A stretch of 64,000 nt of DNA from Tepidimonas sediminis. GTDB taxonomy: Bacteria > Pseudomonadota > Gammaproteobacteria > Burkholderiales > Burkholderiaceae_C. Location of the stretch: positions 62,001-126,000 of the forward strand of contig NZ_VJND01000006.1 in assembly GCF_007556605.1 (NCBI RefSeq). The letters run 5' to 3'. Both the position numbers and the translations under genes were made by a program. Numbering within the stretch: the stretch's first letter is position 1; each line of letters starts with the position of its first letter. A model generated the notes under the pieces. That model searched no databases. It was not told where the DNA came from and saw only the letters and a program-made list of their open reading frames with translations. Of the stretch, positions 24,205 to 34,164 are shown one piece after another.

Positions 24205-24999
24205 ATGGCCGACCCCCGCGATCCGAGCCAAGACGAGCTGGCCGGCACCGAGCAGCCGTTCGTCGCGCACCTGATGGAGCTGCGCGACCGCATCCTGTAC
24301 GCCCTCTACGGCATCGGCGCCGCCATGGCGCTGCTGGCGCTGTGGCCAGGTCCGAGCGGCCTGATCGACTTCATCGCCACACCGATCCGCGCCCACATGC
24401 CCCCCGACGCGCGGCTGATCGCGGTGGGCGTCTTCACGCCGTTCTTCGTGCCGCTGAAGGTGCTGATGATGGCCGGCCTTCTGCTGGCGCTGCCGTGGGT
24501 GATCTACCAGATCTGGGCCTTCGTCGCCCCGGGCCTGTACAGCCACGAGAAGCGCTTCGCGCTGCCGCTGATCGTCATCGGCAGCGCGCTGGCCTACCTC
24601 GGCATCGCGTTCGTGCAGTTCTTCGTGCTGGACAAGATGTTCGCCTTCATCCAGGGCGTCACCCCGGCCAGCGTCAACGCCACGCCGGACATCGCCTCCT
24701 ACGTCGAGGCGATCCTGTCGCTGTACCTGGCCTTCGGGCTGGCGTTCCAGGTGCCGGTGGTGGTGATGCTGATGGTGCGCTTCGACATGGTCACCGTGGA
24801 CAAGCTCAAGAGCTTCCGCGGCTACTTCATCGTCATCGCCTTCGTGATCGCCGCCGTGGTCACGCCGCCCGACGTCATCTCGCAGGTGGCGCTGGCGGTG
24901 CCGATGTGCCTGCTGTACGAGCTGGGCATCTGGGGTTCGCGCTGGTTCGCACGCGTCAGCCGCGCCCCGGACGAGTCACCCGCCACGCCGGCGGATTGA
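24205..24999 (+). CDS. tatC: Sec-independent protein translocase TatC
   Basis: A 264-residue protein with six membrane segments and the family landmarks FVAHLMELRDRILYALYG at the N terminus, FTPFFVPLKV, and FVIAAVVTPPDVISQ. TatC is the signal-peptide receptor of the Tat translocon. It closes the tatABC operon. The next gene starts 19 bases later but is unrelated. Confidence 0.96.
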   Translation: MADPRDPSQDELAGTEQPFVAHLMELRDRILYALYGIGAAMALLALWPGPSGLIDFIATPIRAHMPPDARLIAVGVFTPFFVPLKVLMMAGLLLALPWVIYQIWAFVAPGLYSHEKRFALPLIVIGSALAYLGIAFVQFFVLDKMFAFIQGVTPASVNATPDIASYVEAILSLYLAFGLAFQVPVVVMLMVRFDMVTVDKLKSFRGYFIVIAFVIAAVVTPPDVISQVALAVPMCLLYELGIWGSRWFARVSRAPDESPATPAD

Positions 25000-25018
25000 G
25001 TGGGCGCGGGCGTCGTCG

Positions 25019-26647
25019 ATGTTCACCCATCGCCGCAAGCTGCCCATCGGCATCCAGACCCTGCGCGACATCCGCGAGGGCGGCTACTACTACGTCGACA
25101 AGACACCGCTGATCGCGCGCCTGGTCGACAGCGGCAAGCACTACTTCCTCTCGCGCCCGCGCCGCTTCGGCAAGAGCCTATTGCTGGACACGATCGCCTG
25201 CGCCTTCGAGGGCCGCCGTGAGCTCTTCGACGCGCACGACGGCGCCGACGGCAGCGCCCCACGCGAGCGGCTGTTCCTGGCCGACCACTGGGACTGGGCC
25301 AGGCCGCACCCGGTGATTCGCCTGAGCTTCGCGGCCGGGCGGCTGGAAAAGCGCGAACAGCTCGAGCGCCACATCCACGCCCAGCTGGAGGCCAACGCCC
25401 GCCATCTGGGGATCGAACTGCCGCCGGCGCAGACCGACATCCCGCTGCGCTTCGATGCGCTCATCGAGCGCGCCGCCGCAGTCCACGGCCGCCAGGCCGT
25501 GGTGCTGGTCGACGAATACGACAAGCCCATCCTCGACAACCTCGAAGCGCCTGAGGTCGCCCGCGCCATGCGCGAGGGCCTGCGCAACCTCTACAGCGTC
25601 ATCAAGGGCAGAGACGCCGACCTGCGCTTCGTGCTGCTCACCGGCGTGTCCAAGTTCAGCAAGGTCTCGATCTTCTCGGGCCTCAACAACCTGCGCGACA
25701 TCACGCTGTCGCCCGAATACGGCACGATCTGCGGCTACACGGATGAGGACATCGACACGGTGTTTGCGGCGGAGCTCGAGGCCGCCGCAGCCGAGGGCCA
25801 GCCGCTGGACCGCGAGGAGATCCGCCGCTGGTACAACGGCTACCGCTGGGGCCCGGTGAGCGTCTACAACCCGTTCGACGTCCTGCTGCTGCTGGCCGAG
25901 CGGCAGTTCCGCGCGCACTGGTTCGAGACCGGCACGCCGACGTTTCTGGTGCACTGGCTGCGCGGCAAGGGGTTCTTCACGCCGCGGCTGGAGCGCATGC
26001 TCGCGGAAGAGGATTTGCTGTCGGCCTTCGATGTGGACGACATCGCCGTGGAGGCGATGCTGTGGCAGACCGGCTACCTGACGATCCGGCGCGTGGAGGA
26101 CTGCGGCGGGCTGCTGAGCTATGAGCTGGGCGTGCCGAACCGCGAGGTGCGCGGCGCGCTCAACCGCGCGCTGCTCTACTTCGGCTGGTACCCGGCCGAG
26201 CAGCGCCAGTTGCTGCAGCCGCGCACGCTCTACCATGCGTTGCTGCAGGCCGACACCGACGCGCTGCGCGCGCACTTCGAGCGTCTCTACGCCAGCATCC
26301 CGCACGACTGGGTGCGCGCCAACCCCATCGCCCGGTACGAGGGCTACTGCGCCAGCGTGTTCTACAGCCATCTGGCCAGCCTCGGCCTGGACATCGTGCC
26401 GGAGGAAGTCTCCAACCCGGGGCAGTGCGACCTCGTCATCCGCCATGCGGGCCGCGCCTGGGTGATCGAGTTCAAGGTGGTCGACGGCGAGGAGCCCACC
26501 GGCGAGGCCATGCGGCAACTGAAGGCCCGCGACTACGCGGCCAAGCACCGCGGCGCGCCGGGCATCACGGAAGTGATCGAGCTGGGCGTGGAGTTCAGCC
26601 GCGCCAAGCGCCAGATCGTGGGGTGGGAGGTGGCGCGCGGCCGTTGA
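25019..26647 (+). CDS. AAA-ATPase-like protein with C-terminal PD-(D/E)XK nuclease domain (DUF1703 type)
   Basis: A 542-residue two-domain protein. The N-terminal part (about 1-300) is an AAA-ATPase-like domain with an unusual P-loop RPRRFGKS (46-53) and a Walker B-like VVLVDEYDKP (161-170), then LTGVSKFSKVSIFSGLNNL and WYNGYRWG. The C-terminal part (about 440-542) is a PD-(D/E)XK nuclease-like fold with D471 and E484-F-K486. Such proteins match the AAA-ATPase-like plus DUF1703 architecture, common as scattered accessory genes; their function has not been established to my knowledge. The gene lies between tatC and a convergent degS-like gene. All key residues are present. A weak ribosome site makes the start slightly uncertain. 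Confidence 0.85.
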   Translation: MFTHRRKLPIGIQTLRDIREGGYYYVDKTPLIARLVDSGKHYFLSRPRRFGKSLLLDTIACAFEGRRELFDAHDGADGSAPRERLFLADHWDWARPHPVIRLSFAAGRLEKREQLERHIHAQLEANARHLGIELPPAQTDIPLRFDALIERAAAVHGRQAVVLVDEYDKPILDNLEAPEVARAMREGLRNLYSVIKGRDADLRFVLLTGVSKFSKVSIFSGLNNLRDITLSPEYGTICGYTDEDIDTVFAAELEAAAAEGQPLDREEIRRWYNGYRWGPVSVYNPFDVLLLLAERQFRAHWFETGTPTFLVHWLRGKGFFTPRLERMLAEEDLLSAFDVDDIAVEAMLWQTGYLTIRRVEDCGGLLSYELGVPNREVRGALNRALLYFGWYPAEQRQLLQPRTLYHALLQADTDALRAHFERLYASIPHDWVRANPIARYEGYCASVFYSHLASLGLDIVPEEVSNPGQCDLVIRHAGRAWVIEFKVVDGEEPTGEAMRQLKARDYAAKHRGAPGITEVIELGVEFSRAKRQIVGWEVARGR

Positions 26648-26675
26648 GGTGACCCCGCTGGGCGCGCCGCGTCGC

Positions 26676-27830
26676 TCAGCGCGCCAGCTCCGCAGGCGGC
26701 GGCCGCCGGCCCGGCACCACCCGCACCGTCAGCTCGCGTCCGTTGCGCCACAGGCGCAGGCTGGCCGGCTCGCCGGGCCGCAGCGCCGCCACCGCGCCGA
26801 GCAGCCCGGGCACGTCGTTGACGGGTGTCTCGCCCACGTGCGTGATGACATCGCCCGGTTCCACGCCGGCGCGGGCCGCCGGCCCGTCCTGCAGCACCCC
26901 CGCCACCACCACACCGCGCGCCTGCCGCGGCAGGCGGAGGTGCTCGGCCCACGCCGGCTCCAGCGGGCGCGGTTCCACCCCGATCCAGCCCCGTGTGACG
27001 TGGCCGTCGCGCACGATGGCCTCCATGACGTCGCGCGCGGTGGCGATCGGGATCGCGAAGCCGATGCCCATCGAGCCGCCGGAGCGTGAATAGATCGCGG
27101 TGTTGATGCCGACCAGCCGGCCTTCGGCGTCGACCAGCGCACCGCCCGAATTGCCCGGGTTGATCGCCGCGTCGGTCTGGATGAAGTTCTCGAAGGTGTT
27201 GAGGCCGAGCTCGCTGCGTCCCAGCGCGCTGACGATGCCGGCGGTCACCGTCTGCCCGACCCCGAACGGATTGCCGATGGCCAGCACCCGGTCGCCGACC
27301 TGCAGCGCTTCCGAATGCCCGAGCACGATCGCCGGCAGATCGGGCAGCTGCACGCGCAGCACCGCCAGGTCGGTGTCCGGGTCGGTGCCGATCACCTGCG
27401 CGGTGGCCTGCCGTCCGTCGCTGAGCTGCACGACGATCTCGTCGGCGCCCTCGATCACGTGGTTGTTGGTCAGGATGTAGCCGGCCGGGCTGACGATGAC
27501 GCCCGAGCCCAGACCGCTTTGCGGCTCGCTGTCGGGCCGCTCGCCGAAGAAGTGCCGGAACCACGGCTCCTGCGCGTGCGGGTTGTCCGTCTGCGAGGTG
27601 GTGGAGATGCTGACCACGGCCGGGGCGGCGGCGCGGGCCGCCGCCGCCAGGCTGGTGGCCTCCACGACCGGACTGCGCTCGGCCTGCGCTGCCTGCAACA
27701 CCGGCACCGCCTGGGTCCACGCCCGCGACCCCGTCAGCCAGTGCGGCTTGAGCGTGGCCACCACGAACCAGACCGCCAGCAACACCGTGACGGTCTGCGC
27801 GAACAGCAGCCACAGGCGCCGTGCGTTCAC
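26676..27830 (-). CDS. degS: DegS-like trypsin-type periplasmic serine protease with one PDZ domain
   Basis: A 384-residue protease anchored by one N-terminal membrane helix (about residues 7-26). The catalytic triad is H124 (TNNHVIEG), D154 (DTDLAVLRV) and S228 (NPGNSGGAL). A single PDZ domain follows (about 275-370). One membrane anchor and one PDZ match DegS, which in E. coli cuts the anti-sigma factor RseA when outer-membrane proteins misfold. The RpoE-RseA-RseB operon is in this window (54.5-56.8 kb). DegQ-like roles cannot be excluded. It converges on the AAA-nuclease gene with 28 bases between. Confidence 0.88.
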   Translation of the reverse strand: MNARRLWLLFAQTVTVLLAVWFVVATLKPHWLTGSRAWTQAVPVLQAAQAERSPVVEATSLAAAARAAAPAVVSISTTSQTDNPHAQEPWFRHFFGERPDSEPQSGLGSGVIVSPAGYILTNNHVIEGADEIVVQLSDGRQATAQVIGTDPDTDLAVLRVQLPDLPAIVLGHSEALQVGDRVLAIGNPFGVGQTVTAGIVSALGRSELGLNTFENFIQTDAAINPGNSGGALVDAEGRLVGINTAIYSRSGGSMGIGFAIPIATARDVMEAIVRDGHVTRGWIGVEPRPLEPAWAEHLRLPRQARGVVVAGVLQDGPAARAGVEPGDVITHVGETPVNDVPGLLGAVAALRPGEPASLRLWRNGRELTVRVVPGRRPPPAELAR

Positions 27831-27877
27831 CGCCGCCCTCCGCGCCGGCTGCGCCCGTCACCCTGCGGGCGGGCCCC

Positions 27878-27891
27878 TTGACCCACGTCAA
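27878..27891. promoter_or_regulatory. FNR/Anr/Dnr-type operator
   Basis: TTGAC-CCAC-GTCAA is a perfect inverted repeat with 4-base spacing, extended by CC/GG to 18 bases (27876-27893). This matches the CRP/FNR-family box TTGAY-N4-RTCAA used in low-oxygen and NO responses. Its centre lies 75 bases before the DUF3149 ATG and about 54 bases before the divergent degS-like start. A centre at -41.5 would place the DUF3149 transcript start near 27926. Confidence 0.6.
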
Positions 27892-27959
27892 GGCGGGCGC
27901 CACCGCACCGTCGTCCAATTCCGCCGAGGGGCGGCATCGACCCGCTCGAGGAGTGCGTC

Positions 27960-28106
27960 ATGAAAGCCATCGTCGATCTCTTCTCCACCGATTATGGCCT
28001 GATGAGCGTGGGCGTCATCGCCTTCGTGATCGGGATGGGGGTCTACTTCGTGCGCCTGTTCACCCGCAAGATGGACGAATCGGCGCGCCAGGCCTCCGGC
28101 CGCTGA
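27960..28106 (+). CDS. DUF3149 family small membrane protein
   Basis: A 48-residue protein with the sequence pattern of DUF3149: a short polar start ([13 protein letters not shown]), one membrane helix (about residues 14-34) and a basic tail ([13 protein letters not shown]). The ribosome site GAGGAG (27948-27953) is strong with 6-base spacing. It is one of the smallest genes here and has its own regulatory region with an FNR-type box. Its function is unknown. The size and topology recall small accessory subunits of membrane complexes, but that is only analogy. Confidence 0.8.
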
Positions 28107-28131
28107 GCGGCGGCCCGCCTGCGGGCGGTGC

Positions 28132-28137
28132 GACAAT
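28132..28137 (+). promoter_or_regulatory. Candidate -10 element of the NIF3 gene
   Basis: GACAAT ends 6 bases before the ATG at 28144, leaving no room for a ribosome binding site. This predicts a leaderless transcript if it is used. Confidence 0.4.
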
Positions 28138-28143
28138 CCGCCC

Positions 28144-28938
28144 ATGAGCGCAGGATGTTGCGAAGACGGTGCGGCCGCGGGCTGCACGCTGGCGGAGCTG
28201 GTCGGCTGCGCCGAGGCGTTGTTGGAGCCGGCGCGCTTCCAGGACTACGGTCCCAACGGACTGCAGGTGGAGGGGCGGGCACGCGTGCGGCGGCTCGTCT
28301 CCGGCGTCACGGCGAGTCTGGCGCTGATCGAGGCTGCCATCGCCGAAGGGGCCGATGCCATCATCGTGCACCACGGTCTGTTCTGGCGTGGCCAGCGTGG
28401 CACCGTCACCGGCTGGCTTAAGGTGCGGCTGCAGCGGCTGCTGGCGCACGACGTCAGCCTGCTGGCCTACCACCTGCCGCTGGACGCCCATCCGCAGCTC
28501 GGCAACAACGCCCAGCTCGCGCAGCGCCTGGGCTTCACGCCGGAAGGCGACGCCTGGGAGCGGTTCGGCGAGCAGCAGCTCGGCTTCATCGGGCGCTGCC
28601 CGCTGCCCGAGGCGGCGGCGCTGGCGGCGCATCTGCAGGCGGTGCTGGGGCGCGCGCCGGTGTGGGTGCCGGGAGATGGCCGGCCGATCCGGCGAATCGC
28701 CTGGTGCAGCGGGGGCGCGCAGGGCTGGTTCGAGGCCGCCATCGCCGCCGGTGCCGATGCCTTCCTGACCGGCGAGATCTCCGAGCCGCAGGCGCACCTG
28801 GCGCGCGAGACCGGCGTGGCGTTCTTCGCCTGCGGCCACCATGCCACGGAGCGCTACGGCGCCGCGGCGCTTGGCGAATGGCTGGCGCGGCGCTGCGGCG
28901 TGCAGCACCGCTTCATCGACATCGACAACCCGGCCTGA
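28144..28938 (+). CDS. NIF3-like dinuclear metal centre protein (YbgI family)
   Basis: A 264-residue NIF3/YbgI protein. Metal-binding histidines are visible in [23 protein letters not shown] and near the C terminus in [12 protein letters not shown]. Family members form hexameric rings with two metals per subunit; some are annotated as GTP cyclohydrolase type 2 homologues, but the physiological role is unsettled. In betaproteobacteria a NIF3 gene commonly lies near the petABC operon, as here. The N terminus carries CCEDG, unusual but harmless. Confidence 0.9.
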
Positions 28939-28951
28939 TCGAGGACAGCCC

Positions 28952-29989
28952 ATGGCCGACTTGCCGCCGATCGCCATCACGATGGGCGATGCCGCCGGCA
29001 TCGGGCCGGAGCTGATCGCGCGCGTGTTCCAGCGCCACCCCGAGTGGTCGGCGCGCTGCGTGGTGATCGGCGATCTGGCGGCGTTGCGCCGCGGCGCCGC
29101 CGTCGTGGGCGGCGTGCCGATCGCCGAACTGGGCGGGCCGGCGGAGGCCGCCGCCGTGCCGCCGGGCGCGCTGCCGCTGTGGCCGGCGGTGTCGCTGGCG
29201 GCGCTGCCGCCGTGGGGGCGAGTGAGCGCCGCGGCCGGCCGCGCCGCGGCCGAGGCGGTGGAGCTGGCGGCCGAAGCGGCGCTGCGCGGCGAGGTCGCCG
29301 CGGTCGTGACGGCGCCGCTGGCCAAGGCCGCGCTGGCGGCGGCCGGCATCGCGTTTCCTGGCCACACCGAACTGCTGCAGGCGGTGGCGGCGCGCCACCT
29401 CGGCGTGGGCGTGGAGCGGCTGCCGGTGCGCATGATGCTGTCCAACCGCGAGCTGCGCACCGTGCTGGTCAGCATCCACGTGCCGCTGCGCCGGGCGCTG
29501 GAGCTGGTCACGCCGGCCAACCTCGACGAGACGCTGCGCATCACGCACGCGCACTTCACGCGCGTGCTGGGCTGGCCGGCGTGCCGCATCGCCGTGGCGG
29601 GTCTCAACCCGCACGCTGGCGAGGATGGGTTGTTCGGGCGCGAGGAGCTCGACGTGATCGCACCGGCGGTGGCGCGTGCGCGCGCCGCCGGCATCGACGC
29701 CCACGGCCCGCTGCCGCCGGACACGGTGTTCATGCGCGCGCGCCAGGGGGAGTTCGATGTCGTCATCGCCCAGTATCACGACCAGGGCCTGATTCCAGTC
29801 AAGTACCTGGGGCTGGCCGAGGGCGTCAACACGACGCTGGGCCTGCCTTTCGTGCGCACCAGCCCGGACCACGGCACCGCGTTCGACCTCGCCGGCAGCG
29901 GCCGCGCCGACCCGTCGAGTCTGGAGGCCGCCATCCAGGCCGCGCTGCAGGCGGTGTCGGCGCGCGCGGCCGCGCCGCCGTCCGGCTAG
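28952..29989 (+). CDS. pdxA: 4-hydroxythreonine-4-phosphate dehydrogenase family protein (PdxA-like)
   Basis: A 345-residue PdxA-family enzyme. The N-terminal loop reads ITMGDAAGIGPEL, and metal-binding histidines are seen in FPGHTELLQ, SIHVPLRR and QYHDQGLIPVKYLG. PdxA oxidises 4-phosphohydroxy-L-threonine in vitamin B6 synthesis. The ITMGD start also resembles PdxA2-like enzymes acting on other four-carbon acid phosphates, and the gene is not beside surA and rsmA as classical pdxA is, so the substrate is not certain. It starts 13 bases after the NIF3 gene, after GAGGA. Confidence 0.8.
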   Translation: MADLPPIAITMGDAAGIGPELIARVFQRHPEWSARCVVIGDLAALRRGAAVVGGVPIAELGGPAEAAAVPPGALPLWPAVSLAALPPWGRVSAAAGRAAAEAVELAAEAALRGEVAAVVTAPLAKAALAAAGIAFPGHTELLQAVAARHLGVGVERLPVRMMLSNRELRTVLVSIHVPLRRALELVTPANLDETLRITHAHFTRVLGWPACRIAVAGLNPHAGEDGLFGREELDVIAPAVARARAAGIDAHGPLPPDTVFMRARQGEFDVVIAQYHDQGLIPVKYLGLAEGVNTTLGLPFVRTSPDHGTAFDLAGSGRADPSSLEAAIQAALQAVSARAAAPPSG

Positions 29990-30012
29990 GGAAAACCCCT
30001 TGGCCGTTCCTT

Positions 30013-30018
30013 TACAAT
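30013..30018 (+). promoter_or_regulatory. -10 element upstream of petABC
   Basis: TACAAT within TTTACAATGC, 80 bases before the petA ATG. The -35 region is weak (GGAAAA at 29990-29995 with 17-base spacing). Confidence 0.45.
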
Positions 30019-30098
30019 GCCATGTGGTCTGCGTGCGTAACCGGGCCGTACCCGGCCGCCGCATCCCCCTGCCATCCCCACCCGGAGAGACTTCCCCC

Positions 30099-30698
30099 AT
30101 GAGCGAAGCCACCGTCGATCCCCAACGTCGAACTTGGCTCATCACCTCGGCCGCCGTGGGTGGCGCCGGGGCGGTGGCCGCGGCCGTGCCCTTCGTCCGT
30201 TCGTTCGCGCCATCGGAACGCGCCAAGGCCGCCGGCGCCTCGGTCGAGGTCGATGTCTCCAAGCTGCAGCCGGGCGAAAAGCTCGTCGTCGAATGGCGTG
30301 GCAAACCGGTCTGGGTGATGCGCCGCACGCCGGAGCAGCTGGCGTCGCTGGAGCAGGTGGAAGACCAGCTGGCCGACCCGAACTCCGAGCGCAAGGCGTA
30401 TCCCACGCCGCCGTACGCGAAGAACCGCCATCGCTCGATCAAGCCCGAGTACCTCGTCGCGGTGGGCATCTGCACGCACCTGGGCTGCTCGCCGGTGGAC
30501 AAGCTGCAGCCGGGGCCGCAGCCGTCGCTGCCGGACGACTGGAAGGGCGGCTTCCTGTGTCCGTGCCACGGCTCCACGTTCGACATGGCCGGCCGGGTGT
30601 TCAAGAACAAGCCGGCGCCCGACAACCTGGAGATCCCGCCGCACCACTACGTCTCCGACACCGTGGTGCTGATCGGCGAGGATCCGCCCAAGGCCTGA
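30099..30698 (+). CDS. petA: Ubiquinol-cytochrome c reductase iron-sulfur (Rieske) subunit
   Basis: A 199-residue Rieske protein of the bc1 complex. The N terminus carries a twin-arginine signal/anchor (R10-R11-T-W-L followed by a hydrophobic helix), so it should be inserted by the TatABC system encoded 5 kb upstream. The 2Fe-2S ligands are in CTHLGC (125-130) and CPCHGS (154-159). The 37-residue insertion between the cluster loops and the head is normal for bc1-type proteins. It opens the petABC operon. Confidence 0.97.
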   Translation: MSEATVDPQRRTWLITSAAVGGAGAVAAAVPFVRSFAPSERAKAAGASVEVDVSKLQPGEKLVVEWRGKPVWVMRRTPEQLASLEQVEDQLADPNSERKAYPTPPYAKNRHRSIKPEYLVAVGICTHLGCSPVDKLQPGPQPSLPDDWKGGFLCPCHGSTFDMAGRVFKNKPAPDNLEIPPHHYVSDTVVLIGEDPPKA

Positions 30699-30739
30699 TG
30701 CGCCGCCGCCACGCCCGTTCCCGCTCGAGGTAATCCACC

Positions 30740-32161
30740 ATGGCCGAATTCAAGGAAGCCCCCGCCAACGCCTCTGCCGGCGAAAAGCTCCTGACCTGGA
30801 TCGACAACCGCTTCCCGCTGTCGAAGATGTACCGGGAGCACATGTCGGAGTACTACGCGCCGAAGAATTTCAACACCTGGTATTTCTTCGGCTCCCTGGC
30901 GATGCTGGTGCTGGTGATCCAGATCGTCACCGGCATTTTCCTCGTCATGCACTACAAGCCCGACGCCTCGCTCAACGCCGCGGGCGTGCCGGTGGCGTTC
31001 GCCTCGGTCGAGTACATCATGCGCGACGTGCCGTGGGGTTGGCTGATCCGCTACATGCACTCCACCGGGGCCTCGGCCTTCTTCATCGTCGTGTATCTGC
31101 ACATGTGGCGCGGGCTGATCTACGGTTCGTACCGCAAGCCGCGCGAGCTGGTGTGGATCTTCGGCGTGGCGATCTTCCTGTGCCTGATGGCCGAGGCGTT
31201 CTTCGGCTACCTGCTGCCGTGGGGCCAGATGTCGTACTGGGGTGCGCAGGTGATCGTCAACCTGTTCTCGGCCATCCCGTTCATCGGCCCGGATCTGGCG
31301 ATCTGGATCCGCGGTGACTACGTGGTGTCGGATGCGACGCTGAACCGCTTCTTCAGCTTCCACGTCATCGCCATCCCGCTGGTGCTGCTGGGGCTGGTGG
31401 TGGCGCACATCATCGCGCTGCACGAGGTCGGCTCCAACAACCCCGACGGCATCGAGATCAAGGCCACCAAGGGGCCCGACGGCAAGCCGCTGGACGGCAT
31501 CCCGTTCCACCCGTACTACACCATCCACGACATCCTGGGCGTGGCGGTGTTCCTGCTGGTGTTCTCGGCCATCGTGTTCTTCGCGCCGGAGGCCGGCGGC
31601 TACTTCCTCGAGTTCAACAACTTCATCCCGGCCGACCCGATGGTGACGCCGCCGCACATCGCGCCGGTGTGGTACTTCACGCCGTTCTACTCGATGCTGC
31701 GCGCCACGACGAGCGAGATGATGGTGGTGCTGGTGGCGGTGGTGCTCATCGCCGCCGTGCTCGCGGCGCTGAAGTCCGGCGCCGGGGCGCTGGGCAAGCT
31801 GGCCATCCTCGGTGGCGCCGTGGTGCTGGCGGCGCTGATGCTGACCATCGACGCCAAGTTCTGGGGTGTGGTGGTGATGGGCGGCGCGGTCATCATCCTG
31901 TTCTTCCTGCCGTGGCTGGACAGGAGTCCGGTGAAGTCGATCCGTTACCGGCCGGGCTGGAACAAGTGGCTCTACGGCCTGTTCATCGTCAACTTCCTGG
32001 TGCTGGGCTACCTCGGCGTGCTGCCGCCGTCGCCGATCGGCGAGCGGGTCTCGCAGGTCGGCACGCTGTTCTACTTCGGCTTCTTCCTGCTGATGCCGTG
32101 GTGGAGCCGCCTGGGCGAGTTCAAGCCGGTGCCGGCGCGCGTGACGTTCCAGCCCCACTGA
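30740..32161 (+). CDS. petB: Cytochrome b of the bc1 complex
   Basis: A 473-residue membrane protein that binds two b hemes and forms both quinone sites. Heme-ligand helices are visible around MHSTGASAFFIVVYLHMW and FHVIAIPLVLLGLVVAHIIALHE. The Qo-site motif is P309-V-W-Y312 in place of PEWY, a variant known in beta- and gammaproteobacteria. The C terminus has extra membrane helices. A GAGG ribosome site precedes the ATG. Confidence 0.97.
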   Translation: MAEFKEAPANASAGEKLLTWIDNRFPLSKMYREHMSEYYAPKNFNTWYFFGSLAMLVLVIQIVTGIFLVMHYKPDASLNAAGVPVAFASVEYIMRDVPWGWLIRYMHSTGASAFFIVVYLHMWRGLIYGSYRKPRELVWIFGVAIFLCLMAEAFFGYLLPWGQMSYWGAQVIVNLFSAIPFIGPDLAIWIRGDYVVSDATLNRFFSFHVIAIPLVLLGLVVAHIIALHEVGSNNPDGIEIKATKGPDGKPLDGIPFHPYYTIHDILGVAVFLLVFSAIVFFAPEAGGYFLEFNNFIPADPMVTPPHIAPVWYFTPFYSMLRATTSEMMVVLVAVVLIAAVLAALKSGAGALGKLAILGGAVVLAALMLTIDAKFWGVVVMGGAVIILFFLPWLDRSPVKSIRYRPGWNKWLYGLFIVNFLVLGYLGVLPPSPIGERVSQVGTLFYFGFFLLMPWWSRLGEFKPVPARVTFQPH

Positions 32162-32195
32162 CCGGGTGCTTGCAAGGAAGAGGAGAGGGATTCCG

Positions 32196-32963
32196 ATGAA
32201 GCGATGGATCGCAACCGGCCTGGCGGCGCTCGGGATGCTGCTGGGGGCAAGCCTCGGCGCGCATGCCGCCGGCACCAACTTCCCGATGGACAAGGCGCCG
32301 CGCCTGGGCACCGACCAGGCCGCACTGCAGCACGGCGCCAAGATCTTCGTCAACTACTGCCTGAGCTGCCACTCGGCGTCGTTCGTGCGCTACAACCGGC
32401 TCACGGAGCTCGGCCTGACCGAAAAGCAGATCAAGGAGAACCTGATGTTCACCACCGACAAGGTGGGGGACCAGATGGTGGCGGCGATCTCGCCGCAGCA
32501 GGCCAAGGCCTGGTTCGGCGCCCAGCCGCCGGATCTGTCGCTGGTGGCGCGCTCGCGTGCCGGCGCCGGCTACAGTGGCGCGGACTACCTCTACACGCTG
32601 CTGCGCGGCTACTACCGTGACCCCAACCGCCCCACCGGGTGGAACAACGTGGTCTTCCACAACATCGGCATGCCGCATCCGCTGTGGGAACTGCAGGGCG
32701 AACGCAAGCCGGTGTTCGAGAAGGTCACGAGCCACGGCCATGAAACCGAGGTGTTCCGCGGCTGGGAGGTCGTCAAGCCGGGCAAGCTGTCCGAGGCCGA
32801 GTACGACCGCCTCGTGGCTGACCTGGTCGCCTACCTCGAGTGGATGGGCGAGCCGGGCAAGAACGACCGCATCCGTCTCGGTGTGTGGGTGATGATCTTC
32901 CTTGGTCTCTTCGCCATCGTGGCCTGGCGCCTCAACGCCGCCTATTGGAAAGACGTCAAGTGA
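32196..32963 (+). CDS. petC: Cytochrome c1
   Basis: A 255-residue protein with a Sec signal (residues 1-24, cleaved after AHA), the heme c site C55-L-S-C-H59, and a C-terminal membrane anchor (VWVMIFLGLFAIVAWRL). It receives electrons from the Rieske cluster and passes them to soluble cytochrome c in the periplasm. The ribosome site AGGAAGAGGAGAGG is very strong. A clear terminator follows. Confidence 0.96.
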   Translation: MKRWIATGLAALGMLLGASLGAHAAGTNFPMDKAPRLGTDQAALQHGAKIFVNYCLSCHSASFVRYNRLTELGLTEKQIKENLMFTTDKVGDQMVAAISPQQAKAWFGAQPPDLSLVARSRAGAGYSGADYLYTLLRGYYRDPNRPTGWNNVVFHNIGMPHPLWELQGERKPVFEKVTSHGHETEVFRGWEVVKPGKLSEAEYDRLVADLVAYLEWMGEPGKNDRIRLGVWVMIFLGLFAIVAWRLNAAYWKDVK

Positions 32964-32999
32964 TCCCCACCTGACCGGCGCGCCGCGCGCCCGGTCGCC

Positions 33000-33042
33000 A
33001 CAGTGGGCGGGCCAGCCGGCGGGCGGCCTCCCACTGTTTTTT
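33000..33042 (+). terminator. Rho-independent terminator of petABC
   Basis: ACAGTGGG (33000-33007) pairs with CCCACTGT (33030-33037), enclosing a GC-rich inner stem, and leads straight into a run of T (33037-33042). This is the clearest intrinsic terminator in the window. Confidence 0.8.
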
Positions 33043-33070
33043 CGTTGACGACATCAGGAGCGAACACGCC

Positions 33071-33682
33071 ATGATGGTCCTGTATTCGGGCACGACCTGC
33101 CCGTATTCGCACCGCTGCCGTTTCGTGCTGTTCGAGAAGGGCATGGATTTCGAGATCCGCGACGTGGATCTCTACAACAAGCCCGAGGACATCTCGGTGA
33201 TGAACCCGTACGGTCAGGTGCCGATCCTGGTCGAGCGCGACCTGATCCTGTACGAGTCCAACATCATCAACGAGTACATCGACGAGCGCTTTCCCCACCC
33301 GCAGCTGATGCCGGGTGACCCGGTCGATCGCGCGCGCGTGCGGCTGTTCCTGCTCAACTTCGAGAAGGAGCTGTTTTCGCATGTCTCGGTGCTGGAGCAG
33401 CGCACGCCCAAGCCGACCGACAAGCAGCTGGAGAAGGCGCGCGCCCACATCCGCGAGCGGCTCACGCAGCTGGCCCCGGTGTTCCTGAAGAACAAGTACA
33501 TGCTCGGCGACAATTTCTCGATGCTGGACGTGGCGATCGCGCCGCTGCTGTGGCGCCTCGACCACTACGGCATCGAGCTCAACCGCAACGCCGCGCCGCT
33601 GCTGAAGTACGCCGAGCGCATCTTCTCGCGCCCGGCCTACATCGAGGCGCTGACGCCGTCCGAGAAGGTCATGCGCAAGTGA
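33071..33682 (+). CDS. sspA: Stringent starvation protein A
   Basis: A 203-residue glutathione-S-transferase fold protein: thioredoxin-like domain (MVLYSGTTCPYSHRCRFVL... NPYGQVPILVERDL) and C-terminal helical domain. SspA binds RNA polymerase and affects stress and stationary-phase transcription. The N-terminal CPYS motif is kept although SspA proteins usually lack GST activity. Two adjacent ATG codons begin the frame. sspA and sspB overlap in TGATG. Confidence 0.94.
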   Translation: MMVLYSGTTCPYSHRCRFVLFEKGMDFEIRDVDLYNKPEDISVMNPYGQVPILVERDLILYESNIINEYIDERFPHPQLMPGDPVDRARVRLFLLNFEKELFSHVSVLEQRTPKPTDKQLEKARAHIRERLTQLAPVFLKNKYMLGDNFSMLDVAIAPLLWRLDHYGIELNRNAAPLLKYAERIFSRPAYIEALTPSEKVMRK

Positions 33683-34164
33683 TGGACGCCGACCTGCCCT
33701 CGCTGCGGCCGTACCTGGTGCGCGCGGTGCACGAGTGGTGCACCGATCACGGCTTCACCCCCTACCTCGTGGTGGCGGTGGACGAGCGCGTGCAGGTGCC
33801 GCGCGAATACGTGCGCGACGGCCAGATCGTGCTCAACATCAGCTACGACGCCACGGCCAACCTGCGCATCGACAACGAGGAGGTCACCTTCAAGGCGCGC
33901 TTCGGCGGCGTGGCGCGCGACGTCGTCATCCCGATCGGGCACGTGATCGGCATCTACGCCCGCGAGAACGGCCAGGGGATGGCGTTTCCGCACCCGGACC
34001 CCATCGACGAGGACGGTGCGAGTTCGGCGCATGGCGCCTCGCGTCCCTCCCTGCAGGTCGTCAGCGACCGCGACGAGGCCAGGGAGGAGGCGCCGGACGA
34101 CGAGGAGCCGCCGCCGGCCCCGCGCCGCGGCGGCCGGCCGCCGGCGCTCAAGCGCATCAAGTGA
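33682..34164 (+). CDS. sspB: ClpXP adaptor protein SspB
   Basis: A 160-residue adaptor that delivers ssrA-tagged proteins to ClpXP. The folded domain covers about residues 1-110 (LRPYLVRAVHEWCTDHGFTPYL ... FKARFGGVARDVVIPIGHVIGIYARENGQGM). An acidic, flexible linker follows, and the end GRPPALKRIK resembles the short C-terminal ClpX-binding motif. The ATG overlaps the sspA stop by one base. Confidence 0.94.
   Translation: MDADLPSLRPYLVRAVHEWCTDHGFTPYLVVAVDERVQVPREYVRDGQIVLNISYDATANLRIDNEEVTFKARFGGVARDVVIPIGHVIGIYARENGQGMAFPHPDPIDEDGASSAHGASRPSLQVVSDRDEAREEAPDDEEPPPAPRRGGRPPALKRIK

What the first reader, a model, noticed from the sequence alone, without database searches (positions are those of the whole stretch)
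25019..26647. AAA-ATPase/PD-(D/E)XK fusion inserted between tatC and degS
The flanking order tatABC - degS - NIF3 - petABC is a typical conserved block, and this 542-residue gene interrupts it. It has an unusual RRFGKS P-loop, a VDEYDKP Walker B and an intact D471/E484/K486 nuclease site. The family is widespread and uncharacterised to my knowledge; an ATP-dependent nuclease in an accessory position is a plausible defence or mobile-element protein.
Basis: partly seen in the sequence, partly recalled or inferred. Interest (0 to 1): 0.6.

Follow-up and report, generated by a model that had tools for sequence, protein, structure and literature searches.

The report
Shuffled multi-copy ATPase-nuclease gene family
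The odd gene is one of eight scattered copies of a predicted DNA-cutting ATPase in this bacterium; the copies share a nearly fixed engine but carry different, swappable segments, as expected of a small reshuffling immune or conflict repertoire whose real task is still untested.

Summary
ORF 25019-26647 (542 aa) is a PF09820 ATPase fused to a PF08011 (DUF1703) nuclease, intact, between convergent tatC and degS. The site is filled in 2 of 11 genus genomes and empty in 9. The genus is Tepidimonas. The larger finding: the genome holds 8 dispersed copies without internal stops, the others 81-92% identical to this one. Sequence shared between sites is confined to the coding region; no terminal repeats or target duplications were found. 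The copies are mosaics: a core (94% identical within genomes) is interrupted by variable modules (33-73%) with a few discrete alleles, most shared between species, that assort as four independent units. Identical tracts up to 371 bp indicate gene conversion. Modules B and E are also the variable parts in other genera; in one Methylobacter pair only B differs strongly. The model resembles STAND (NLR-like) and other AAA+ ATPases plus a CidB-like nuclease. Best reading: a conflict repertoire against mobile elements whose recognition segments reshuffle. Diversification is shown; defence is inferred. Closest analogue: Rpn nucleases. The family, its expansions and its recombination were already described.

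The parts
25019..26647 (+). AAA-ATPase_like (PF09820) + PDDEXK_9/DUF1703 (PF08011) gene, 542 aa; one of 8 copies in this genome
25031..26638 (+). Approximate limits of the DNA shared between dispersed copies: begins near codon 5 (RRKLPIGIQ) and ends near ..GGGTGGGAGGTGGCG; flanks are unrelated between different sites
   Evidence: 10-column mean identity 0.34 to 0.90 at the 5' edge; 1.0, 0.59, 0.32 at the 3' edge
25061..25141 (+). Module A (residues 15-23 and 36-41), two allele classes in the window genome and G002
25154..25177 (+). Walker A RPRRFGKS (residues 46-53)
25331..25489 (+). Module B (residues 105-157), helical segment between strand 99-103 and the Walker B strand; three allele classes in the window genome and G002
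25511..25522 (+). Walker B DEYD (residues 165-168)
25694..25720 (+). Module C (residues 226-234), three allele classes; fully linked to module D
25895..25900 (+). Module D (residues 293-294)
26087..26269 (+). Module E (residues 357-417), beta hairpin plus helices between the ATPase part and the nuclease; four allele classes in the window genome and G002
26336..26626 (+). PD-(D/E)XK nuclease domain (residues 440-536), catalytic D471 (26429-26431), E484 (26468-26470), K486 (26474-26476)
   Evidence: CidB-like fold
24205..24999 (+). tatC, upstream co-directional neighbour (19-base spacer)
26676..27830 (-). degS-like trypsin-PDZ protease, convergent downstream neighbour

Best explanation
The gene is one member of a dispersed, intact, recombining family (8 copies here) of switch-type AAA+/STAND-like ATPases that carry a C-terminal PD-(D/E)XK nuclease. 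SHOWN from sequence: the multi-copy state; gain of copies at different intergenic sites in different species; a shared unit confined to the coding region; a core under strong purifying selection and homogenised within each genome by gene conversion; variable modules (A, B, C with D, E) with discrete alleles, most shared between species, assorting as four independent units; modules B and E variable in other genera too. INFERRED: modules B, C/D and E are recognition or partner-specificity segments; an incoming phage or plasmid feature triggers the ATPase switch; the nuclease then cuts DNA; and several copies with different module combinations, reshuffled by recombination, give the cell a small changing repertoire against mobile elements. 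New copies probably arise by nuclease- or repair-assisted illegitimate recombination rather than by classical transposition.
For: 8 of 8 copies in the window genome have no internal stop; the other seven are 81-92% identical to P0001. ppc/rpiR and rhtB/SpoU are filled only in the window genome and empty in 4 and 5 listed genus genomes; four sites are filled only in G008, one in G001 (G005 unresolved), one in G007 inside rpsJ-rplC. Flank homology stops at the coding region between sites and in two Halomonas-group pairs. Core identity within genomes 0.943 against A 0.65, B 0.63, C 0.73, D 0.33, E 0.53. Gene conversion: of six pairs shuffled, three exceed the 99.9th percentile (371 vs 114, 254 vs 130, 153 vs 142 bp) and three do not (121 vs 130 within a genome; 80 vs 90 and 80 vs 136 between genomes). 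Core pN/pS 0.14-0.19 within genomes; same-class modules between two species pN 0.01-0.09, pS 0.22-0.43. Methylobacter L137/L150: DNA 0.90-1.00 through the upstream flank and nearly all of the gene except module B (about 0.5). Methylotuvimicrobium-genus tandem pair: nuclease 0.99, B 0.53, E 0.42. ATPase part: SSO1545 (2fna_A) Z 16.2, NLR-type proteins, Avs3 and Avs5 at Z 10-13; nuclease part: CidB Z 10.9 over 149 residues. Catalytic residues kept in 24 of 24 copies. A review table lists PF09820 in RADAR RdrA, PARIS1 and Old-tin defence proteins (PMC10952713, passage). Rpn nucleases, similar in genomic behaviour, defend against phage (PMC10327210, abstract and passages).
Against: No functional test exists. 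No PADLOC model matches significantly. Checked neighbours of the Tepidimonas copies are mostly housekeeping genes, not defence islands, unlike Rpn. In 74 named loci, immediate neighbours hit more PADLOC families (127 from 136 proteins) than fourth neighbours (24 from 100), but the tool counts families, not proteins, and models overlap, so this is weak. That every copy in a genome has a different combination is not significant by itself (probability under random assortment 0.73, 0.84, 0.97). The fold also matches ORC, clamp-loader and TnsC ATPases at Z about 9-10. No repeat-type sensor is seen. Modules A and B are less constrained than the core even within one allele class (pN/pS about 0.33 against 0.14). 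MAG assembly chimerism cannot be excluded for the Methylobacter pair. Modules were mapped on secondary structure only; no coordinates were available.
Confidence: 0.42

Rival explanations
1. Selfish mobile gene: the nuclease promotes copying of its own coding region into new spacers (homing-like or primer-template-switch recombination) and into other copies, and the variable modules set DNA target preference; the host gains nothing.
For: Single-gene gains at many sites, unit confined to the coding region, no cargo for most copies, patchy spread; ectopic conversion; matches on 60 plasmid records and on 31 unannotated faecal records labelled 'Bacteriophage sp.'; TnsC transposition ATPases are among the fold matches at Z 9.4-10.3; Rpn nucleases promote RecA-independent recombination and autonomous movement of their own gene was raised as one possibility (PMC5350276, passages).
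Against: No terminal repeats; no target duplication: left-right flank similarity equals that of mismatched flanks (14.0 vs 13.7 for 40 bases, 26.6 vs 24.8 for 100 bases, 24 copies). For Rpn, Zhong et al. found no evidence of autonomous transposition (PMC10327210, passages). Several sites stay filled in two to four species.
Confidence: 0.2
2. Self-regulated nuclease toxin (toxin-antitoxin-like or Rpn-like): the variable modules are self-inhibition or oligomer-pairing surfaces, varied so that paralogues do not cross-inhibit or co-assemble.
For: Modules C and D are linked in 24 of 24 copies although about 60 residues apart; Rpn precedent; a nucleotidyltransferase plus HepT-like gene pair overlaps the end of one copy each in the window genome and G002, and the nucleotidyltransferase also follows the G010 copy.
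Against: No convincing conserved internal start: M184 is an ATG in 24 of 24 but has an SD-like stretch in 7. The nucleotidyltransferase was seen beside only 3 of the 24 copies compared. C-D linkage may be plain DNA proximity.
Confidence: 0.18
3. Neutral paralogue family: diverged duplicates convert each other wherever sequences are still alike, and the divergent stretches are weakly constrained loops that resist conversion; function is ordinary DNA metabolism.
For: Conversion needs similarity, so islands of difference could persist passively; the modules are the least conserved parts family-wide (mean pairwise identity B 0.33, E 0.37, core 0.66); module pN/pS over all within-genome pairs is 0.67-1.42.
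Against: Within an allele class pN is low; among 47 non-independent pairs with core >=0.85, module B identity is below 0.6 in 35 and at or above 0.8 in 10, while two control stretches are at or above 0.8 in 45 and 46 (E is less cleanly split); block differences in nearly identical backgrounds.
Confidence: 0.14
4. Secreted effector acting on other cells, as suggested for Cardinium DUF1703.
For: Ten of 25 Cardinium paralogues have a predicted signal peptide cleavage site (PMC6387759, section 14).
Against: The Tepidimonas copies begin with a short stretch before RRKLPIGIQ and show no signal-like hydrophobic run by eye (no predictor was run); Tepidimonas is a free-living genus (recalled).
Confidence: 0.04

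Closest known systems
DUF1703 family (PF09820 + PF08011), incl. the Cardinium cCpun expansion
   Same: Same two-domain architecture, same Walker and nuclease motifs, multi-copy expansions, intragenic recombination among paralogues (PMC1913061 passages; PMC6387759 section 14).
   Different: In Cardinium cCpun the paralogues average 39% identity and no homogenisation was seen; here the core is 94% identical within genomes and the variation sits in discrete exchangeable modules, with site-by-site gains that can be placed on species.
Rpn (YhgA-like, recombination-promoting nuclease) family
   Same: PD-(D/E)XK nuclease, several paralogues per genome, single-gene gains without terminal repeats or target duplications, tandem arrays, a hypervariable part (passages).
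   Different: Different Pfam family (only PF09820 and PF08011 pass cut-off); an ATPase is fused; variation is internal and in several modules, not in the C-terminal tail; no intragenic antitoxin found; checked Tepidimonas neighbours are not defence genes.
STAND/NLR-type immune ATPases (Avs3, Avs5, Apaf-1, CED-4, plant resistosomes)
   Same: Predicted fold of residues 6-382; an NTPase joined to an effector domain (recalled for the named proteins).
   Different: Effector is at the C-terminus and no repeat sensor is seen; family-specific P-loop RPRRFGKS; other AAA+ classes match about as well below the top hit.
CidB/CifB cytoplasmic-incompatibility nucleases
   Same: Nuclease fold (7fiv_B Z 10.9, 149 residues, rmsd 2.7).
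   Different: CifB has two PD-(D/E)XK domains and a CifA partner (PMC12445526 passages); here one nuclease domain is found and the neighbours are tatC and degS.

Membership tests
DUF1703 / AAA-ATPase_like-PDDEXK_9 | Both Pfam models above curated cut-off, ATPase N-terminal, nuclease C-terminal | tested here: met
   199.8 bits (cut-off 26.1) and 55.3 bits (25.5)
DUF1703 / AAA-ATPase_like-PDDEXK_9 | Walker A RPRRFGKS, Walker B DEYD, D-E-K nuclease residues | tested here: met
   24 of 24 genus copies; reference motif from PMC1913061 (passages)
STAND/NLR-type ATPase | STAND-class fold rather than another AAA+ class | tested here: inconclusive
   2fna_A (SSO1545) Z 16.2, rmsd 4.0, 288 aligned; NLR-type chains Z 10-13; but ORC (up to 12.8), TnsC and clamp loaders (9-10) match as well
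STAND/NLR-type ATPase | C-terminal repeat sensor array | tested here: not met
   Secondary structure of the model runs from the ATPase through about 60 variable residues to the nuclease
STAND/NLR-type ATPase | Ligand-triggered oligomerisation | not testable with these tools
   -
Known anti-phage systems in PADLOC-DB 2.0.0 | Match to a system protein model | tested here: not met
   Only Cas4_II at E 0.011 among matches at E<=1
Insertion sequence / transposon | Terminal inverted repeats at fixed ends | tested here: not met
   No inverted-repeat pair joins the two ends of the window copy; ends vary by several bases between copies
Insertion sequence / transposon | Target-site duplication | tested here: not met
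   Own versus mismatched flanks alike, 24 copies; old duplications could have eroded
Rpn (PF04754) | Pfam match | tested here: not met
   Not among the 3 families at E<=1
Rpn (PF04754) | Separately translated variable C-terminal antitoxin | tested here: inconclusive
   No convincing internal start; M184 conserved in 24 of 24, SD-like in 7
CifB | Two PD-(D/E)XK domains and adjacent cifA | tested here: not met
   One nuclease domain; neighbours tatC and degS

The most novel reading that the evidence does not exclude
A bacterial counterpart of an NLR gene family: many switch-ATPase-nuclease paralogues with a homogenised engine and a small set of exchangeable recognition cassettes, recombined by gene conversion into ever new combinations, maintained as a genome-wide, horizontally refreshed immune repertoire in many bacterial lineages.
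Probability: 0.28. Interest if true: 0.88.

Novelty: new variant of a known kind. Interest (0 to 1): 0.62.

Why it matters
DUF1703 genes are widespread, sometimes in many copies, and their role is stated to be unclear; a homologue is reported as part of the Medea selfish element of flour beetles (PMC6387759, section 14). The module map turns the question into one experiment: swap one module between two copies and ask whether the trigger changes. If it does, bacteria would have a cassette-shuffled receptor repertoire resembling NLR families. If not, the same data define a single-gene family that spreads its coding region without transposon ends.

Tried and rejected
Transposon: looked for terminal repeats and target duplications; none found. 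A shared hexamer beside the ppc copy was judged chance. Vertical housekeeping gene: rejected by empty sites. Distinct combinations as proof of selection: rejected by permutation. First module coordinates (note, script) were alignment columns; corrected. Defence-neighbour enrichment: suggestive only, because families and not proteins are counted; two neighbour proteins of L183 were dropped from 138 to meet the residue limit. Pfam on the same 136 neighbours showed no dominant partner family (most frequent in 4 members). Rpn-like internal antitoxin: not found. Foldseek against PDB gave no match at E<=0.001; against viral models one, a 'Nuclear protein' of a murid betaherpesvirus, with UL24-named proteins just above that limit, read as the general nuclease fold. 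M. buryatense copies (six full-length, 44-55% to P0001) were not used for the main mosaic test. Rows left out of the 24-copy set: matches in G005, G006 and G009 (mostly pieces at contig ends), contig-end pieces of G008, and the G018 and G022 copies. Of 79 loci, five were left out of A3 (L135 stop; L144, L147, L160, L180 cut or joined matches), and 2 of 6 viral-collection loci were used. Papers: PMC6387759 section 14 and passages; PMC1913061, PMC10952713, PMC10327210, PMC12445526, PMC5350276 passages only; all others search listings only. The statement that module exchange is not in print rests on searches of this open-access library; subscription papers are mostly missing.

Full report
WHAT IS THERE. 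The window gene 25019-26647 codes for a 542-residue protein with PF09820 at residues 9-219 and PF08011 at 440-536, both above cut-off. It starts 19 bases after the stop of tatC (24205-24999, same strand) and ends 28 bases before the end of the convergent degS-like gene (26676-27830; trypsin and PDZ domains). The window genome has 2.53 Mb in 35 contigs. In its genus, G002 has the contig lengths of Tepidimonas alkaliphilus YIM 72238 and G001 that of a Tepidimonas sp. SKYG89 contig, so the window is a Tepidimonas.

ACCESSORY POSITION. tatC is found in 11 of 11 genus genomes. In the window genome and G002 the ATPase-nuclease gene follows it; in the other 9 the degS homologue follows directly. The tatC-degS distance between query pieces is about 2.3 kb in 2 and 0.58-0.73 kb in 9.

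EIGHT COPIES. A search of the window genome with the protein gives eight full-length places on eight contigs, the other seven 81-92% identical, none with an internal stop. Of 40 genomes (window genome included) 11 have the gene: the window genome, 8 of the 10 other genus members, G018 and G022. In G005, G006, G008 and G009 many matches are pieces at contig ends, so their numbers are uncertain. Class-wide, 15 of 274 genomes have PF09820, 11 of these with two or more matches, and 0 of 14 control genomes have it.

SITES. I joined about 100-residue pieces of the proteins flanking the copies and searched them in the 11 genus genomes, reading the distance between the two flanks by hand; the tool truncates its table, so the number of genomes readable differs by site. 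ppc/rpiR is filled only in the window genome (1 of 5; empty G001, G002, G008, G009). rhtB/SpoU is filled only in the window genome (1 of 6; empty G001, G002, G004, G008, G009). zapD/yacG is filled in 2 of 4 (window, G002; empty G008, G009). Aldehyde dehydrogenase/rdgC is filled in 2 of 9 (window, G002; empty G004-G009; G010 has 2.3 kb of unexamined DNA). The kefB-like/kdsD-like site is filled in 3 of 9 (window, G002, G008; empty G003-G007, G010), and in G009 contigs break inside a copy there. The site beside the MFS gene is filled in the window genome, G002 and G008, with a porin gene upstream, farther away and turned round in G002. Four sites of G008, one of G001 and one of G007 are filled in that genome alone; G005 is unresolved at the G001 site, and G005, G007, G009 or G010 have other extra DNA at some of them. 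The G007 copy lies between rpsJ and rplC; the other 9 genomes readable there are empty. Pfam confirmed 18 flanking proteins; rhtB, rlmI, kdsD and other names are recalled from sequence. Gains in single lineages are the simplest reading.

THE UNIT. The 24 complete genus copies share DNA across sites only from the RRKLPIGIQ codons to the last codons; one to nine codons before that motif and everything outside differ. In 13 of 24 copies further unshared codons (2-10) precede the stop. At ppc/rpiR the copy lies in a spacer of some 30 bases and the ribosome site of rpiR is kept. Left and right flanks of a copy are no more alike than flanks of different copies (14.0 vs 13.7 for 40 bases, 26.6 vs 24.8 for 100 bases). 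No inverted repeat joins the two ends of the window copy. In 14 of 24 copies a TA...T box starts 10-14 bases before the chosen start codon (shuffles 3.2 on average, at most 9; 1 of 24 downstream control windows), which suggests leaderless transcripts; of the ten without it, six closely follow a co-directional gene (tatC twice, ppc, zapD twice, rpsJ).

MOSAIC. The DNA identity table of the copies is not tree-like: pairs within a genome reach 92.5%, while copies at the same site in the window genome and G002 are 82-87%. Long identical tracts (371, 311, 254 bp) occur within the window genome. Six pairs were tested by shuffling mismatches: three exceed the 99.9th percentile (371 vs 114, 254 vs 130, 153 vs 142), one within-genome pair (121 vs 130) and two between-genome pairs (80 vs 90, 80 vs 136) do not. 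Differences are concentrated in A (15-23, 36-41), B (105-157), C (226-234), D (293-294), E (357-417), with smaller variable spots elsewhere (for example 312-347). Mean within-genome identity is 0.65, 0.63, 0.73, 0.33, 0.53, against 0.943 for the rest. Alleles fall into classes, most of them shared by species (for example E3 in three window-genome and two G002 copies); several G008 classes are private. In the window genome and G002, A, B, C and E occur in many combinations (six of six A x B, nine of twelve B x E), while C and D are linked in 24 of 24 copies. The eight window-genome, seven G002 and six G008 copies all have different combinations, but random assortment would often give this too (0.73, 0.84, 0.97). 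At five sites shared by the window genome and G002, E is the same class in four, while A, B or C differ in all five.

SELECTION. Core pN/pS within genomes is 0.19, 0.14, 0.14; for the modules, over all within-genome pairs, 0.67-1.42. Between the two species within one allele class pN is 0.01-0.09 with pS 0.22-0.43, ratios 0.03 (C/D), 0.16 (E), about 0.33 (A, B). The alleles are constrained versions, A and B less so than the core. Neighbouring called ORFs give mean pS 0.26 between the two genomes (39 ORFs, some possibly not genes); the core gives 0.33.

FAMILY-WIDE. The broader set is 74 loci, mostly Pseudomonadota with MAGs assigned to other phyla, plus two viral-collection loci. Family mean identity is B 0.33, E 0.37, A 0.44, C/D 0.46, core 0.66. 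Two copies in gamma proteobacterium HdN1 have core 0.88, nuclease 0.95, B 0.25, E 0.45, C/D 1.00; of the other within-genome pairs not all differ in every module. Two Methylobacter MAGs have DNA 0.90-1.00 identical over 840 upstream bases and the gene, except the B block at about 0.5, and unrelated DNA after the gene; assembly chimerism cannot be excluded. Two Halomonas-group pairs share only the coding region. A tandem pair in G372, a single-contig genome of the genus of M. buryatense, has nuclease 0.99, B 0.53, E 0.42, with the variable stretch running from about 301 to 420 and most of the rest 0.92-1.00; a tandem pair in G319 has B 0.47, D 0 of 2, E 0.89 (36 residues compared), core 0.92. 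Among 47 non-independent pairs with core >=0.85, B identity is below 0.6 in 35 and at or above 0.8 in 10; control stretches 160-212 and 440-500 are at or above 0.8 in 45 and 46; E is less cleanly split.

STRUCTURE. AlphaFold2 on the 77-row alignment gives mean pLDDT 91.1, pTM 0.89. Residues 6-382 match SSO1545 (2fna_A, Z 16.2), then NLR-type chains and ORC (up to about 13), and at Z 9-10 also Avs3/Avs5, BrxC, TnsC and clamp loaders; two CidB entries match the C-terminal part (ranges 323-542 and 377-542, Z 10.9 and 9.2). Module B is the helical pair before the Walker B strand; E is a hairpin with helices between the two halves.

HOW IT PROBABLY WORKS. A switch ATPase joined to a nuclease, kept as several intact copies with a constrained engine and exchanged, discrete variable segments, fits a recognition repertoire in a genetic conflict, most likely against phages or plasmids. 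Only the diversification is shown; recognition, triggering and target are inferred. The main rivals are a self-copying nuclease gene and a self-inhibiting toxin.

KNOWN OR NEW. The family and its motifs were described in 2007 (PMC1913061, passages) and its expansions and recombination in Cardinium in 2019 (PMC6387759, section 14). Rpn nucleases show a similar genomic behaviour and defend against phage (PMC10327210, passages). In the open-access searches made here I found no report of discrete module exchange, coding-region-bounded gains, or a homogenised core in this family. I rate it a new variant of a known kind.

Noticed in passing
window 24205-33700 against G002 (L036): Synonymous divergence between the window genome and G002 is about 0.47-0.68 for the called genes from tatC through the petABC region but mostly 0.07-0.24 (a few 0.42-0.47) near three other copies, as if this region had been exchanged with another lineage.
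   Followed up: partly
L069 (G008), spacer between tatC and degS: The empty tatC-degS site of G008 holds a fragment resembling a nucleotidyltransferase substrate-binding (HEPN-like) protein (E 8e-5, below the curated cut-off), so the same spacer may have received another insertion.
   Followed up: partly
L033 6443-7019 and L035 6172-7019, also L041: One copy each in the window genome and G002 overlaps a downstream nucleotidyltransferase (MNT) gene followed by a HepT/HEPN-like gene, a toxin-antitoxin type pair; the G010 copy is followed by the same nucleotidyltransferase.
   Followed up: partly
upstream of 14 of 24 copies, e.g. L043, L047, L048: A TA...T box (often CGCTACCAT) starting 10-14 bases before the start codon suggests leaderless transcripts.
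   Followed up: partly
L207 (G010 C6 53000-58200): The aldehyde dehydrogenase/rdgC site of G010 carries about 2.3 kb of other DNA; its content was not examined.
   Followed up: no
L137 and L150, downstream flank: Two nearly identical Methylobacter loci diverge directly after the gene's end, as if the gene end were a recombination boundary.
   Followed up: no
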